From positions 186,001 to 250,000 of the forward strand of contig NZ_JABEQM010000004.1 in assembly GCF_014174155.1 (NCBI RefSeq): DNA of 64,000 nt, given 5' to 3'. Source of the DNA: Gluconacetobacter tumulisoli. GTDB taxonomy: Bacteria; Pseudomonadota; Alphaproteobacteria; Acetobacterales; Acetobacteraceae. A program made the translations under genes and the position numbers. Positions 56,740 to 63,111 of the stretch are shown piece by piece. Position 1 is the first letter of the stretch, and each line of letters opens with the position of its first letter. The notes under the pieces were generated by a model. It did no database searches. It was not told where the DNA came from and worked only from the letters and a program-made list of their open reading frames with translations.

Positions 56740-57999
56740 TCAGGCCGCCGCGTGGACCTTACGGTTCACCGAAACATCCAGCAACGTCGCCAGGGCGGCC
56801 ACCATCTCGTCCATCATCGCGTCGGTATGGAACGGGCCGGGCGTCAGGCGCAGCCGCTCGGTGCCGCGCGGCACGGTCGGGTAATTGATCGGCGTCGCAT
56901 ACAGCCCGTATTCCGACAGCAGGCGGCGGCTGATCTCGGTACACCGGTCGGCGTCGCCGACCGGGATCGGCACGATATGGCTGGGCGTCTGCATGAACGG
57001 CACGCCCGCCGCGCGCAGGCGGGCCCGGAACGCCTCGACCCGCTCGAACATCTTCTCGCGCCGCCAGCCGTCCTTGCGGACCAGCCGGACACTGGCCAGC
57101 GCTGCCGCCACGACCGATGGCGGCAGCGACGTCGTGAAGATGAATCCCGACGCCGCGCATCGCAGATAATCGATCAGTTCGACCGACCCGGTGACATAGC
57201 CGCCATGGACGCCGAATCCCTTGGCCAGCGTCCCTTCGATGATGTCGACCTGATCGGCGACGCCGTCGCGTTCCGATACGCCGCCGCCCTGCGCGCCGTA
57301 CAGGCCGACGGCATGGACCTCGTCCAGATAGGTCATGGCGCCGTATTTCCGCGCCAGTGCGCAGGTTGCCGCGATATCGGAAATATCGCCGTCCATGGAA
57401 TAGACGCTTTCGAACGCGACCAGTTTCGGCGCGTCCTTCGGCGCGGCCGCCAGCTTCGCCTCCAGGTCCGCCAGGTCGTTATGTTCGAAGATCACGCAGG
57501 ACGACCCGCGCGCGCCCTTGATGCCGGCGATCATCGACGCATGGTTCTGGCGGTCGGAAAAGCAGATCCAGCCGGGCATGCTGGTCAGGATGGTCTGCAG
57601 GCTGGCCTGGTTCGAGACATAGCCCGAAACGAACAGAAGCCCGGCCTCCTTGCCGTGCAGGCTGGCCAGTTCGGCCTCCAGTTCCGCGTGCAGCGGGCTG
57701 GTGCCGGCAATGTTGCGCGTGCCGCCGGCGCCGGCACCATGCGCGCGGATCGCCGCGATCGCAGCCTCGGCGACCGCGGGGTCGACACCCATGCCCAGAT
57801 AGTCGTTTGCGGACCAGACTACGACCTCCCGCCCCTCGGGCGGCTGGACCACCGGGTCGGCCTGGTCATAGAGCGGGTAATTGTCAGCCTGGCGCGCCAG
57901 GGGGGTGAACTGACGATAACGGCCCTGCCTGCGGATATCTTCCAGCGCTGTTCGGCAGAACCGGTAGAAAGGGTGTCCGCCTGCGTCGATACTGGCCAC
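56740..57999 (-). CDS. hemA: 5-aminolevulinate synthase
   Basis: 419 residues. PLP enzyme condensing glycine and succinyl-CoA, the first step of tetrapyrrole synthesis in alphaproteobacteria. Present are [36 protein letters not shown] and the PLP lysine in [14 protein letters not shown] (Lys260). The start is GTG at 57999 with AGGAG upstream. A 5' gap of 110 bp separates it from the lipoprotein gene. Confidence 0.97.
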
Positions 58000-58109: not shown

Positions 58110-58574
58110 TCATCGCACATACACCCGGATTACGCCGACGGTCACCGACGAATCCGACATAGCGGTTATTTCCACCTGCGAGGGCGACGCCCCGTCCGAG
58201 ACGATCGCCGCAGCGACCGCCTGCCCGTCGGTGGCCGCCAGATGGCCAAGGGCTGTGCCTTCCTGCTGGGGCGTCGGGCCGGCCGGGACCAGCACCCTGA
58301 CCTGGAACAGGACATTGGCCTTCAGCGCCAGCGCCCGCGCCACCGCCCCTTTCAGGGCCGGCTGCCATTGCCCGGGCGGCGTGCCGGCCGGGATCTCGAC
58401 CAGCGGCGGAACGGGTGGCCGTCCGGGCGGGGCAGGCGGCACGTACGGCACGGGGGGGCGGCTGGCATGCGGGTCGAAGGTCCGCTGGTCCACCAGGTCG
58501 CATCCCGCCAGGCACAGGGCGCCCGCCATGGACGCGGCAAGCACAATCGGGTCGGGACGACAACGGATGGACAT
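58110..58574 (-). CDS. hypothetical lipoprotein with Pro-rich linker
   Basis: 154 residues. Lipobox LAGC (Cys25, CLAGCDLVDQRTF). A Pro-rich linker (VPYVPPAPPGRPPVPP) precedes a compact C-terminal domain (about 68-154, VARALALKANVLFQVRVLVP... VTVGVIRVYVR). No family recognised. Divergent from the transketolase-like gene across about 150 bp and upstream of hemA on the same strand. Confidence 0.72.
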   Translation of the reverse strand: MSIRCRPDPIVLAASMAGALCLAGCDLVDQRTFDPHASRPPVPYVPPAPPGRPPVPPLVEIPAGTPPGQWQPALKGAVARALALKANVLFQVRVLVPAGPTPQQEGTALGHLAATDGQAVAAAIVSDGASPSQVEITAMSDSSVTVGVIRVYVR

Positions 58575-58722
58575 GGCGACGCACGGTTACAGCATCCGTC
58601 GCACGGGGCAAGAGCGTTTACGCTGCAACTTGCGGGCCGCCGCCCACACTCCTATAGCCATCGGGATACCTCTTTCGTCGTCGGTGGCCGGATTACGATA
58701 CCGACGAAAGGCAGGCCGACGG

Positions 58723-60846
58723 ATGGAAACCACCCAGACCGACATTCTTCCGTCGGCCCCCGACGGAAGGGCCACGCCGGATGCCGCCCCGCCACGCACG
58801 CGACGGCCCGCCCAGGCCCAGACCATCAATGCCCTGACCATCCATGCCCTGCGCGACGCGGTGCAGGCCTTCATCCGCGCGGCCGGTCCCGACCCCGCCG
58901 CCGCCGCTCAGGCCAGCGCGATGGCGACCCCGACCTGCGTCCTGTGGAACCAGTTCCTGCGTTTCGATCCCGCCTGCGCCGACTGGCCGGACCGCGACCG
59001 CTTCGTCGTGTCGTCCACCCGCCACCGGCTGCTGCTGCAGGCGATGATGCGCCTGGCAGGACAGACGGCGGCACCCGGCGAAGCCCTGGTGGAATACGGC
59101 ACCCATCCCGCCGTCGAAATGGCGTTCGGCCCCAGCGGCCAGGGCCTGGGCGCCGCAGTCGGCATGGCGCTGGCCGAACGGCACATGGCCGCGCGGTTCG
59201 GGCGGTCGATCGTCAATCACCGGATCTGGGTCCTGTCCTGCGGGACGGAACTGTCCACCGGCGTCGCCCTGGAATCCGCGGTGCTGGCCGGGCGGATGGC
59301 CCTGGACCGGGTTACCGTCCTGTTCGAGATCGCCCCCCAGGACGAGATGGAGGCCGAGGACACGCTCGGCCGCTATGCCGCCTCCGGCTGGTCGGTCCGC
59401 ACGGTGGCGGCCGAGGACCCGGACGCCGTCCATGCCGCCCTGTCGGCCACGTTGCGTGCGCGCAAGCCCTGCATCGTCGCCTGCACCGTGACGCCGGCGG
59501 CACCGCCCGCAACGACCGGTTCCGGCCTGGAGGGCGACCTGTCGACCCTGCTGTGGGCGCCCACGGCGCGGCGGGGGGCATCGGCGCGCCGGTCCTGGCT
59601 GCGCCGCCTGGCCAAGCATCGGCATCGGTCGGAATTCGAACGCACGACCCAGGGCCGCCTGCCCGCCTTCTGGCGCGAGGACTGGGTGCGGTCTTGGCAG
59701 ACGCAGGGCGCGCCCCTGCATACCGCGACGCTGCAACCGGCCCCCCTGCGGGCCAGCCGTCCACGTGCGCCGACGCTGCCCGCCCCCCATTCGGGTGGCG
59801 AAACCGCGGATACGACGCTGGCGCACGCGCGGCAGGGACTGGACATCCTGCGCGACCTGATCCCGGAACTGCTGTGCCTGACCTCCCGCCGGGGCATCGA
59901 CCTGACGGGCGCGGCCCGCCGGGGCGAGGCCGCGCCCGATTGCGGCACGCGCGTGCATGGCCTGGCCGCGCTGCTGAACGGCATCGCGCTGCATGGCGGC
60001 CTGATCCCGTGCGGGGCAACGACGTTCGTCGCGGTCGACCGCATGCGTCCGGCGCTGCGTTTCGCCGCGATGATGCGACGGCAGGTCATCTATCTTCTGA
60101 CCGACGACGGGCTGGCGCTGGGTCCAGACGGCGCAGGGTGGCTGCCGGTGGAGCAGTTGGCCAGCCTGCGGGCGATGCCCAATGTCGCGGTATTCCGCCC
60201 CGCAGACCGGAGGGAGACGATGGAATGCTGGGAACTGGCGCTGCGCCGAACCGAGGGGCCCAGCCTGATGACGCTCTGCCCCGTCCTGGCGGACGACGCG
60301 CGGACGCCGGGGGCCGCCGACGCGCGTCCCCGCCGCCCGCGTGGTGCCGGTGGCACCGGCGTTCGCGGCGGATACGTCCTGGAGGAGGCACGTGGGCCGC
60401 GCCAGGTGACATTGATCGCCACGGGCAGCGAGGTCGCGATCGCCCGGCAGGCCCTGCATCACCTGGTGCGCGACGGGATCCATGCCGCCCTGGTGTCGCT
60501 GCCCTGCTGGGAATTGTTCAGCATGCAGGACGCGGCATACCGCGACCATGTGCTGGGGCATGCGCCCCGGATCGGGATCGAGGCCGCGTCGGGATTCGGA
60601 TGGGACCGCTGGCTGGGCCCCGACGGCGTGTTCATCGGCATGGAGGGATTCGGCGAAACCGCGCCGTCCAGCGAACTCTATCGCCGACTGGGCATCACCG
60701 CCGAACGGATCCGTGACACCGCGCGACGCCTTGTCCATGAGACGGGACGTGACTTTCCGTCGCCGTCCGGGCAGAAAGCTGGAGGCGGCCGCGTACGGTC
60801 CCTAGCCGGGGGCGCCGTCCCACAACGGCCGACGATCCGTAGCTGA
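58723..60846 (+). CDS. transketolase-like protein with degenerate active site
   Basis: 707 residues, aligning over all three transketolase domains: PP domain ([21 protein letters not shown]), Pyr domain ([31 protein letters not shown]) and C-terminal domain ([28 protein letters not shown]). Key residues are missing: SGHPG is absent near 55, NGH reads STRH (98-101), the metal/ThDP GDG reads CGT (173-175), the distal Asn is lost (~204), the catalytic Glu of REFG is Val411 (RVHG), and HDS reads DDG (461-463). The frame is intact, so it is likely expressed but not a normal transketolase. It is 22 bp upstream of gap, probably one operon. Start: ATG 58723. Confidence 0.85.
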
Positions 60847-60868
60847 ATTCACACGGGAGAGAAATAGA

Positions 60869-61888
60869 ATGGCTGTCAAAGTCGCGATTAATGGTTTCGG
60901 CCGCATCGGTCGCCTTGTCCTGCGCGGAATCATCGAAAGCGGGCGCACCGACGTGGAGCCCGTCGCCATCAACGATCTGGGCAGCGTCGCCGACAACGCC
61001 CACCTGCTGAGCTATGACAGCATCCACGGCCGTTTCCCCGCCGAGGTACGCGTCGAAGGCAATTCGATCGTCATCGCAGCCAACGGCCGCACCTACACGC
61101 TCGCCGTGTCGGCCGAGGCCGACCCGACCAAGGTGCCCTTCGACGGCGTCGACGTGGCCATGGAATGCACCGGCCGCTTCACCACCAAGGAAAAGGCGGC
61201 CCACCTGATCGAGGCCGGCGCGCGCAAGGTCATCATCTCGGCCCCCGGGACGCATGTGGACGCCACCATCGTCTACGGCGTGAACCACGACACGCTGACC
61301 AGCGACATGACCGTGATTTCCAACGCCTCCTGCACCACCAACTGCCTGGCGCCCGTCGCCAAGGTGCTGGACGAGACGTTCGGGATCGAACGCGGCTACA
61401 TGGTCACCATCCATTCCTATACCGGTGACCAGCGCACGGTGGACACGCTGCACAAGGATCCGCGCCGCGCCCGCGCGGCGGCGATGAACATCATCCCGAC
61501 CTCCACCGGCGCCGCCCGCGCGGTCGGCCTGGTACTGCCGCACCTGAAGGGCAAGCTGGACGGCACCGCCATCCGCGTACCGACGCCCAACGTCTCGCTC
61601 GTCTCGCTCGATTTCGTGCCGGCGCGTGCCCCGGCCTCGGTCGAGGAAGTCAATGCAGCGATGCTGAAGGCCGCGTCCGAGGGCCCGCTGAAGGGCATCC
61701 TAGCGTACAACACCGAACCGCTGGTCAGCACCGACTTCAACCACACCCTCGCGTCCTCGACCTTCGACGCGACGGAAACGGCGCTGGTCGATGGCGGCAA
61801 GCTGGTGCGGATCTGCAGCTGGTACGACAACGAATGGGGCTTCTCCAACCGGATGTCGGACACCGCCGCCCTCTTCGGATCGCTGTAA
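60869..61888 (+). CDS. gap: glyceraldehyde-3-phosphate dehydrogenase, type I
   Basis: 339 residues. NAD-binding [15 protein letters not shown] and the catalytic [12 protein letters not shown] (Cys155), with the partner His in [11 protein letters not shown]. Links triose phosphates to 1,3-bisphosphoglycerate. GGGAGAG precedes the ATG. Its stop overlaps the pgk start (TAATG), and the transketolase-like gene lies immediately upstream. Confidence 0.98.
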
Positions 61889-63111
61889 TGGCCAGCCTTT
61901 CGTTCAAGACGCTCGACACGCTGAACGCGGCAGGACGCAAGGTCCTGCTGCGCGCCGACCTGAACGTGCCCGTGCGCGACGGGCATATCACGGACCTGAC
62001 CCGGATCGAGCGTCTGGCCCCCACCATCCGCGAACTGGCGGACAAGGGGGCGCGGGTCATCGTCGTCAGCCATTTCGACCGCCCCAAGGGCAAGCGCGTG
62101 CCGGAGATGTCCCTGGCCCCGATCGCGGCCGCCCTGGGCAAGACGCTTGGCCGGCCGGTGGCGTTCGCCGACGACTGCATCGGCCCGGTGGCCGAGGCCG
62201 CCGTCGCCGCGCTGAAGGACGGGGACGTGCTGGTGCTGGAAAACACGCGTTTCCATGCCGGCGAGGAAAAGAACGACCCCGACCTGTCGAAGGCGCTGGC
62301 CGGCCTGGCGGACGATTACGTCAATGACGCGTTTTCCGCCGCCCACCGCGCCCATGCCTCGACCGAGGGCGTGGCCCGCTTCCTGCCATCCTTCGCCGGA
62401 CGACTGATGGAAGCCGAACTGAACGCCCTGAACGTCGCGCTGGAAAATCCGGCCCACCCGGTCGGCGCGATCGTGGGCGGCGCCAAGATCTCGACCAAGC
62501 TGGACCTGATCGGCAACCTGCTGGACAAGGTCGACGTCCTGATCGTCGGCGGGGCGATGGCCAATACCTTCCTCGCGGCGAAGGGGGTCGATGTCGGCAA
62601 GTCGCTGCAGGAAGCGGACATGCACGACACCGCGCGCGCGATCATGGCCCGCGCGACGGAACGGGGATGCGAGATCGTCCTGCCGGTGGACGCCGTGACG
62701 GCGACCGAATTCCGGGCCGACCCGCCGACCAAAACCGTGCCGGTCGATGCCATCCCCGCCGATTCAATGGTACTGGACGCCGGGCCGGAAACGGTCAAGC
62801 TGCTGACCGAAAAGATCATCGGGCTGAAGACACTGGTCTGGAACGGGCCGCTGGGCGCGTTCGAACTCCACCCCTTCGACACCGCGACGAACGAACTGGC
62901 GGCCGAAGTGGCGCGGCGGACCCAGGCCGGGCAGCTGACCAGCGTCGCGGGCGGCGGCGACACCGTATCCGCGCTGCGCCATGCCGGGGTCGCGGACCAG
63001 ATGACCTATATCTCGACCGCCGGCGGCGCGTTCCTGGAGTGGCTGGAAGGCAAGACGCTGCCCGGCATCCAGGCGCTGGGCGAACTGTCGGAACGTATCC
63101 TGCCGCTCTGA
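61888..63111 (+). CDS. pgk: phosphoglycerate kinase
   Basis: 407 residues. Substrate site [14 protein letters not shown] with HFDRPKGKR, hinge and nucleotide domain [16 protein letters not shown], and C-terminal [15 protein letters not shown]. Makes ATP from 1,3-bisphosphoglycerate. Start is the ATG at 61888, sharing one base with the gap stop; the frame extends 18 codons into gap without meaning. Followed by repeat A copy 3. Confidence 0.98.

What the first reader, a model, noticed from the sequence alone, without database searches (positions are those of the whole stretch)
58723..60846. Intact-frame transketolase homologue with its active site erased, in the tkt-gap-pgk position
The protein aligns with transketolase across all three domains, yet nearly every catalytic position I can align is changed: no SGHPG, NGH to STRH, GDG to CGT (metal/ThDP ligand Asp lost), distal Asn lost, catalytic Glu in REFG to Val411, HDS to DDG. 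A conserved HP (127-129), a clean GPSGQG and a well-kept C-terminal domain argue against a decaying gene or sequence error. It may be a pseudoenzyme, for example a regulator or subunit of real transketolase, encoded with gap and pgk. Family motifs are established knowledge; the function is inference.
Basis: partly seen in the sequence, partly recalled or inferred. Interest (0 to 1): 0.75.

Follow-up and report, generated by a model that had tools for sequence, protein, structure and literature searches.

The report
Conserved dead transketolase beside gap
In vinegar-type bacteria, the gene beside two glycolysis genes looks like the enzyme transketolase but has lost its working parts, yet it has been kept and protected by selection across many genera, so it probably has a new, non-enzymatic job.

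Summary
Window 58723-60846 (+) is an intact 707-aa transketolase-fold protein just upstream of gap and pgk, with nearly every catalytic, cofactor and substrate residue changed or deleted. It is not recent decay. Of 80 named loci kept from a scan, 56 (Gluconacetobacter, Novacetimonas, Komagataeibacter, Acetobacter, Lichenicoccus, Endobacter and kin) carry such an erased copy beside gap; 24 (Acidocella, Acidiphilium, Rhodopila and others) carry an intact or nearly intact one. The erased copies form one clade, with omega 0.08-0.12 against 0.05-0.07 for true transketolases. The 69 genomes searched each have a canonical-scoring transketolase, in erased-copy genomes at another locus. Active-site positions now evolve at an average rate, while the C-terminal domain has become relatively slower. 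So it is a long-lived pseudoenzyme, left free when a second transketolase did the work. Its job is inferred: non-catalytic binding or regulation in central carbon metabolism. A test for a specific partner failed. Eighteen genomes lack it altogether, so it is dispensable in some lineages. My paper searches found no description of it.

The parts
58723..60846 (+). transketolase-derived pseudoenzyme, 707 aa
59017..59022 (+). codons 99-100 (T-R) where intact copies have G65-H66
59128..59145 (+). retained GPSGQG motif (residues 136-141)
59239..59247 (+). C-G-T (residues 173-175) in place of the metal/ThDP motif G-D-G; the metal loop further on is deleted
59953..59955 (+). Val411 in place of catalytic Glu411
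60040..60042 (+). Arg440 in place of Tyr440; Arg in 27 of 27 degenerate copies rated
60103..60111 (+). D-D-G (residues 461-463) in place of H-D-S
60139..60141 (+). Trp473 in place of His473; Trp in 23 of 27 degenerate copies rated
60355..60747 (+). well-kept C-terminal transketolase domain (about residues 545-675)
60869..61888 (+). gap, type I glyceraldehyde-3-phosphate dehydrogenase
61888..63111 (+). pgk, phosphoglycerate kinase (start taken at MASLSF, one base overlap with the gap stop)
58110..58574 (-). divergent 154-aa conserved protein without a Pfam or NCBIfam match, syntenic neighbour
56740..57999 (-). 5-aminolevulinate synthase, syntenic neighbour

Best explanation
The gene is a pseudoenzyme descended from the ancestral gap-adjacent transketolase of Acetobacteraceae. 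With a second canonical transketolase in the cell (in the window's genome inside an oxidative pentose-phosphate operon), the old copy lost ThDP/Mg binding, the catalytic residues and the sugar-phosphate-binding residues. It kept its fold, a core of shared residues and above all its C-terminal domain, and has been held by purifying selection through much of the radiation of acetic acid bacteria. Shown: descent, loss of active-site residues, intact frames, purifying selection, relative shift of constraint to the C-terminal domain, presence of a canonical paralogue. Inferred: it acts as a protein without transketolase activity, most likely a dimeric binding or regulatory protein in central carbon metabolism, usually made together with GAPDH and PGK. 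The partner or ligand is unknown.
For: 56 of 80 named loci are degenerate beside gap; their frames are open over the three domains except that one (L096) is cut by a contig end. They keep 0-3 of eight key residues (H26, H66, H100, D155, N185, H261, E411, H473), while 23 of 24 canonical loci keep all eight and one keeps six. Thirteen of the 21 positions counted, among them H66, H100, E160, N185, H261, R358, D381, F434, F437, Y440, H461 and H473, are kept in 0 of 56. One clade: 35 rows, SH-aLRT 100, broadly consistent with vertical descent in a gap+pgk tree. Omega 0.084-0.119 in five genus-level sets, against 0.064 for the intact gap-adjacent gene in an Acidocella-like set and 0.048-0.072 for second copies. 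Relative site rate of active-site positions 0.11 in intact copies and 1.17 in degenerate ones; C-terminal domain 1.12 and 0.74. Of 267 canonical-conserved positions 121 are lost: 78 of 140 in PP, 38 of 82 in Pyr, 5 of 45 in C (a subset of rows, see full report). Each of 69 genomes searched has a canonical-scoring Transketolase_N match (best E 1.8e-124 or better); in those with a degenerate copy the rows place it at another locus, and its residues are intact in the copies tabulated. AlphaFold model pTM 0.83; the 50 Foldseek rows listed are all transketolases. Precedent: a 38-residue deletion in human transketolase abolished ThDP binding and activity (abstract of PMC3485151).
Against: No expression, binding or phenotype data. 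In 18 genomes that lack the gene beside gap, no degenerate copy was found elsewhere, so it is dispensable in some lineages. Omega is roughly one and a half to two times that of real transketolase. The confident fold needed a 48-row alignment with 13 intact or nearly intact rows; 11 degenerate rows alone gave pLDDT 53.8. Glu411 is kept in 24 of 56 and Asp155 in 19 of 56 degenerate copies, so some relatives are less erased than the window.
Confidence: 0.8

Rival explanations
1. Regulatory partner of true transketolase: it forms heterodimers with the canonical enzyme and tunes its activity or stability.
For: Glu165, which I recall as part of the glutamate network at the transketolase dimer interface, is kept in 56 of 56 degenerate copies although E160 is gone in all and E411 in 32. 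Raw branch-rate correlation with the second tkt is high (rho 0.83). Each genome searched that has it also has a canonical transketolase.
Against: The raw correlation with an unrelated control, gyrB, is as high (0.86), and after control by gyrB and sdhA the partial correlation with the second tkt is 0.29, p 0.10. Lichenicoccus (G086) carries a canonical tkt from a different branch (L219), so there is no single conserved partner lineage. 18 of 18 genomes without it still have a canonical tkt.
Confidence: 0.3
2. Scaffold or regulator of GAPDH and PGK, encoded with them.
For: Directly upstream of gap on the same strand in 80 of 80 named loci, within 183 nt. In G117, where gap and pgk lie elsewhere, the copy left behind has the longest end branch (1.04) in the tree.
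Against: The adjacency is inherited from the working tkt-gap-pgk arrangement. Rate covariation with gap is nil after controls (0.01). G117 keeps an open copy without gap next to it.
Confidence: 0.2
3. A new enzyme: the old pocket has been rebuilt for another, ThDP-independent reaction.
For: Arg replaces Tyr440 in 27 of 27, Trp replaces His473 in 23 of 27 and Thr replaces Glu160 in 19 of 27 degenerate copies rated; 22 derived positions are conserved in a narrower set of 19 rows.
Against: Pocket positions as a group evolve at about the average rate (1.17). I recognised no new catalytic or metal motif by eye; no dedicated search for one was run.
Confidence: 0.12
4. DNA- or RNA-level role only: the frame is kept as an operon leader or for translation of gap.
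For: Close spacing to gap (median 31 nt in 56 degenerate loci).
Against: Amino-acid constraint (omega about 0.1) and third-position excess (47/27/141 and 46/26/150 against the two nearest species); gap is present without it in other genera; G117 keeps it without gap.
Confidence: 0.05
5. Slowly decaying pseudogene.
For: Pocket residues drift, several lineages lost the gene.
Against: Open frames in the 56 named degenerate loci, omega about 0.1, one clade across many genera.
Confidence: 0.04

Closest known systems
Canonical bacterial transketolase (E. coli TktA; EC 2.2.1.1)
   Same: Three-domain fold, about 30% identity, GPxGQG motif, C-terminal domain; intact relatives sit in the same place before gap-pgk
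   Different: ThDP/Mg motif, catalytic histidines and Glu, and phosphate-binding residues are lost; the metal loop and the H261 loop are deleted
Human TKTL1 (transketolase-like 1)
   Same: Transketolase paralogue with a deletion in the ThDP-binding domain; a model deletion protein bound no ThDP and had no activity (abstract, PMC3485151)
   Different: A human gene whose activity is disputed (abstract, PMC6334435, argues it is a true transketolase). Here nearly all active-site residues of both halves are gone and the gene is the old chromosomal copy of a bacterial family. TKTL1 was not aligned here.
Split-chain transketolase (PDB 6yak/6yaj)
   Same: Transketolase domains in an unusual form
   Different: Entry titles describe an active alpha2beta2 heterotetramer of two chains; here one full-length erased chain
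Second tkt of the window's genome (L001, in a zwf-gnd-tal/pgi-tkt cluster)
   Same: Same family, same genome
   Different: All 31 scored positions intact; 29% identity to the window protein; separate clade

Membership tests
Transketolase (enzyme) | Three-domain transketolase fold and Pfam domains | tested here: met
Transketolase (enzyme) | NCBIfam equivalog cut-off for transketolase (TIGR00232, 682.25 bits) | tested here: not met
   322.7 bits
Transketolase (enzyme) | GDG...N metal/ThDP-binding motif | tested here: not met
   CGT, N185 lost, loop after it deleted
Transketolase (enzyme) | Catalytic His26, His66, His100, His261, His473 and Glu411 (set recalled) | tested here: not met
   none kept in the window
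Transketolase (enzyme) | Sugar-phosphate residues Arg358, Ser385, His461, Arg520 (set recalled) | tested here: not met
   L, D, D, P in the window
Transketolase (enzyme) | ThDP binding and activity | not testable with these tools
   needs protein
Pseudoenzyme | Enzyme fold kept with loss of catalytic residues | tested here: met
Pseudoenzyme | Long-term retention under purifying selection | tested here: met
Pseudoenzyme | A demonstrated non-catalytic function | not testable with these tools
   no data
Pseudogene | Broken frame or omega near 1 | tested here: not met
   open frame, omega 0.097 in the window's genus
TKTL1-type protein | Orthology to human TKTL1 | not tested
   TKTL1 not fetched; trees place the window gene inside the Acetobacteraceae gap-adjacent tkt family

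The most novel reading that the evidence does not exclude
Acetic acid bacteria turned their ancestral transketolase into a dedicated non-catalytic regulator or scaffold that couples the pentose phosphate pathway to GAPDH-PGK, in a group where several members are reported to lack phosphofructokinase (passage in PMC3751514). It would be kept mainly where gluconeogenesis is possible: pyruvate phosphate dikinase is over the cut-off in 26 of 28 genomes with it and 3 of 16 without it, a contrast confounded by shared ancestry and genome reduction.
Probability: 0.25. Interest if true: 0.8.

Novelty: new variant of a known kind. Interest (0 to 1): 0.62.

Why it matters
A gene that at least one genome paper lists as transketolase, in an industrially used group (vinegar, cellulose and nitrogen-fixing strains), lacks the residues needed for the reaction, so a metabolic model that counts it as a transketolase would be wrong. 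It is also a clean natural case of an enzyme made redundant by a second copy and then kept for something else, with intact, partly eroded and erased orthologues at one locus, so the order of loss and the new constraint can be followed and tested.

Tried and rejected
Decay or sequencing error: rejected by open frames in the 56 degenerate named loci and omega about 0.1. In one search the protein match overshoots the stop by 6 codons in 5 of 80 loci and starts 8 codons before the open frame in one (L105): tail ends only.

Independent degeneration in each genus: not needed. The degenerate copies are one clade (35 rows, 100; 25 rows 100, and 27 rows with L023 and L026 at 87, not starred). A separate partial erosion is likely in L014/L116 (G092 and MAG WY1.bin101). 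L013 (G078), partly eroded, groups next to the main clade (support 92), but in the gap+pgk tree G078 groups with intact-copy MAGs (98), so its place is unsettled.

Partner search by rate covariation: one search looked like a link to the second tkt (partial 0.70 given gap), but with gyrB and sdhA as controls it fell to 0.29 (p 0.10), and gap to 0.01; gyrB itself correlated with the gene at 0.86. I treat it as no evidence. Some Komagataeibacter genomes have two or three canonical tkt copies; I took one each, which adds noise.

Fold from degenerate rows alone: poor (pLDDT 53.8, pTM 0.48), so the good model leans on the 13 intact or nearly intact rows of its 48. VIA-align's 50 rows list transketolases at ranks 1-48 and two other ThDP enzymes at 49-50.

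PPDK and sdhA distribution: PPDK over cut-off in 26 of 28 retaining and 3 of 16 lacking genomes; sdhA in 27 of 28 (the 28th, G219, is split over contig ends) and 7 of 16. Only a few independent losses, so no claim is made. G251 and G376 have the gene without a PPDK over the cut-off.

A relocated copy in genomes that lack the gene beside gap: looked for in 18 genomes; the Transketolase_N and A1 matches are canonical copies or short weak matches.

Promoter and terminator scan 58500-60900: none found, uninformative.

Papers: 10 searches. None of their listings showed a paper on a bacterial transketolase pseudoenzyme; the six phrases gave 0 papers. Passages seen: PMC3751514 lists APA386B_1521, numbered next to gap 1520 and pgk 1519, as a transketolase beside APA386B_1152; I did not compare that sequence, but the A. 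pasteurianus type-strain locus L102 is degenerate (9 of 31). PMC3035290 only names N- and C-terminal transketolase sections as annotation differences in G. diazotrophicus. PMC5554229 has no transketolase in its main text. Abstracts seen: PMC3485151, PMC6334435. The library holds only open-licence papers.

Named scan: 187 relatives were found and the best 80 kept; all counts of 80 refer to those. The unnamed loci L034-L063 were checked by profile score, frame and gap adjacency, not tabulated residue by residue. One search extracted minus-strand loci wrongly and was redone. Searches printed no omega; the values come from the logs.

Full report
What is there. The ORF at 58723-60846 (+) is 707 aa without internal stops. 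It matches all three transketolase domains in Pfam but reaches only 322.7 bits on the NCBIfam transketolase equivalog, whose cut-off is 682.25. gap follows after 22 nt and pgk overlaps the gap stop by one base. A divergent 154-aa protein and a 5-aminolevulinate synthase lie on the other side.

The active site. I fetched E. coli tktA and aligned it with the window protein and relatives. I scored 31 positions that I recall as active-site, cofactor or substrate positions of TktA and their neighbours. The window keeps 4 of 31; the second transketolase of the same genome keeps 31 of 31. Whole segments are deleted in more than 80% of the degenerate rows used: E. coli 187-191 (the metal loop), 257-279 (the H261 region), 81-93 and 389-396.

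Not a single-strain accident. A scan of named genomes kept 80 of 187 relatives. All 80 have gap downstream on the same strand within 183 nt, and pgk was found in 78 of the 80 stretches. They fall into two sets: 56 degenerate, which keep 0-3 of eight key residues, and 24 canonical, of which 23 keep eight and one (L116) keeps six. The degenerate set holds Gluconacetobacter, Novacetimonas, Komagataeibacter, Acetobacter, Lichenicoccus, Endobacter and unnamed kin; the canonical set holds Acidocella, Acidiphilium, Rhodopila, Limobrevibacterium and various MAGs. Thirteen of 21 positions counted, among them H66, H100, E160, N185, H261 and H473, are kept in 0 of the 56. Asp155 is kept in 19 and Glu411 in 24 of 56, so the catalytic Glu was not lost everywhere. 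Glu165 is kept in 56 of 56.

Descent. A tree of 68 proteins puts 35 degenerate gap-adjacent copies in one clade (SH-aLRT 100) inside the gap-adjacent family, apart from the second copies. A second tree of 61 rows, with more intermediates, has 25 of them at 100 and 27 at 87 (not starred), with a partly eroded copy (G078, 20 of 31 positions) next to it and another partly eroded pair elsewhere (G092, 19 of 31, with a MAG at 26 of 31). A gap+pgk tree of 70 rows is broadly consistent with vertical descent, but places G078 differently. All three trees are quick searches without bootstraps, and several degenerate rows have long branches.

What replaced it. A Transketolase_N search of 69 chosen genomes (55 from degenerate-copy genera or intermediates, 14 with intact gap-type copies) gave each a canonical-scoring match (best E 1.8e-124 or better). 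In genomes with a degenerate copy the rows place that match at another locus; the list of rows was cut at its low end. The second copies whose residues I tabulated are intact (L001 31 of 31; L210-L219 30-31 of 31). In the window's genome it sits beside tal/pgi, gnd and zwf on the same strand.

Selection. Omega by a codon model, on columns without gaps, is 0.097 (Gluconacetobacter with the window, 11 sequences), 0.102 (Novacetimonas), 0.118 (Komagataeibacter), 0.119 and 0.084 (two Acetobacter groups). Intact gap-adjacent tkt in an Acidocella-like set has 0.064, second copies 0.048-0.072 and gap 0.024-0.048. Pairwise YN00 medians agree (0.070-0.115 against 0.062; pairs outside dS 0.02-3 dropped). 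Differences to the two nearest species fall 47/27/141 and 46/26/150 on codon positions 1/2/3.

Where the constraint went. Relative site rates on 27 degenerate and 21 intact sequences: the 19 of 21 active-site positions still present average 1.17 in the degenerate set against 0.11 in the intact set, while the C-terminal domain goes from 1.12 to 0.74. Of 267 positions conserved in intact copies, 121 are lost, only 5 of 45 in the C-terminal domain. That count used 46 degenerate sequences (the window and 45 of the 56 named, leaving out 11, mostly the most divergent) and 27 intact ones, each thinned to 19. A few pocket positions are fixed to new residues: Arg440 in 27 of 27, Trp473 in 23 of 27, Thr160 in 19 of 27.

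Loss and relocation. Of 24 genomes chosen mainly for lacking the gene, 17 have the divergent neighbour next to gap with no tkt between. In 18 genomes without it beside gap, 18 have a canonical transketolase and none shows a degenerate copy elsewhere. In the gap+pgk tree present/lost needs five changes, three of them among lineages with degenerate copies. In G117 gap and pgk lie elsewhere, while the degenerate copy stays beside the divergent protein (51% identity) and the aminolevulinate synthase (74%) with an open frame, on a long branch.

Mechanism. From the sequence it cannot plausibly bind ThDP-Mg or use sugar phosphates as transketolase does, and selection acts on the protein. Inferred: a binding or regulatory role through the C-terminal domain and the retained fold. 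Candidate partners are the canonical transketolase and GAPDH/PGK. A rate-covariation test favoured the former at first, but not after gyrB and sdhA controls, so I commit only to a non-catalytic role and leave the partner open.

Known or not. My 10 searches of open-licence papers (listed under Tried and rejected) showed no description of this. One genome paper lists the A. pasteurianus gene numbered beside gap and pgk as a transketolase (PMC3751514, passages). The nearest precedent is human TKTL1: a model deletion variant bound no ThDP (abstract, PMC3485151), though another paper argues TKTL1 is active (abstract, PMC6334435).

Noticed in passing
L181 3072-6946 and L220 3689-5934 (+) (G117): gap-pgk lies elsewhere while the degenerate tkt stays beside the divergent protein and aminolevulinate synthase; the copy left behind has the longest end branch in the tree.
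   Followed up: partly
L014 / L179 (G092) and L116: Gap-adjacent transketolase caught part-way: H26, E160, N185 and H473 gone but E411, HDS, H66 and H100 kept in L014; it looks like a second, independent erosion, with an intact second tkt in G092.
   Followed up: partly
L219 (G086, Lichenicoccus): The canonical transketolase of this degenerate-copy genome is from a different branch than the second copies of the other genera tested.
   Followed up: no
G060, G254, G222, G354, G391 and other Komagataeibacter: Two or three canonical tkt copies in several genomes, with more than one zwf copy near tkt.
   Followed up: no
window 58110-58574 (-): A 154-aa protein without a Pfam match, with an N-terminus that by eye looks like a lipoprotein signal, keeps its place upstream of tkt or gap in many of these genomes, even where tkt is absent.
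   Followed up: no
44 genomes: Pyruvate phosphate dikinase is over the cut-off in 26 of 28 genomes with the degenerate tkt and 3 of 16 without it; confounded by ancestry and genome reduction.
   Followed up: partly
G281:C1:2725400-2726849: One of several zwf genes appears split into two frames.
   Followed up: no
window 58693-60738 (-): A 681-aa antisense open frame covers most of the gene; likely an effect of high G+C.
   Followed up: no
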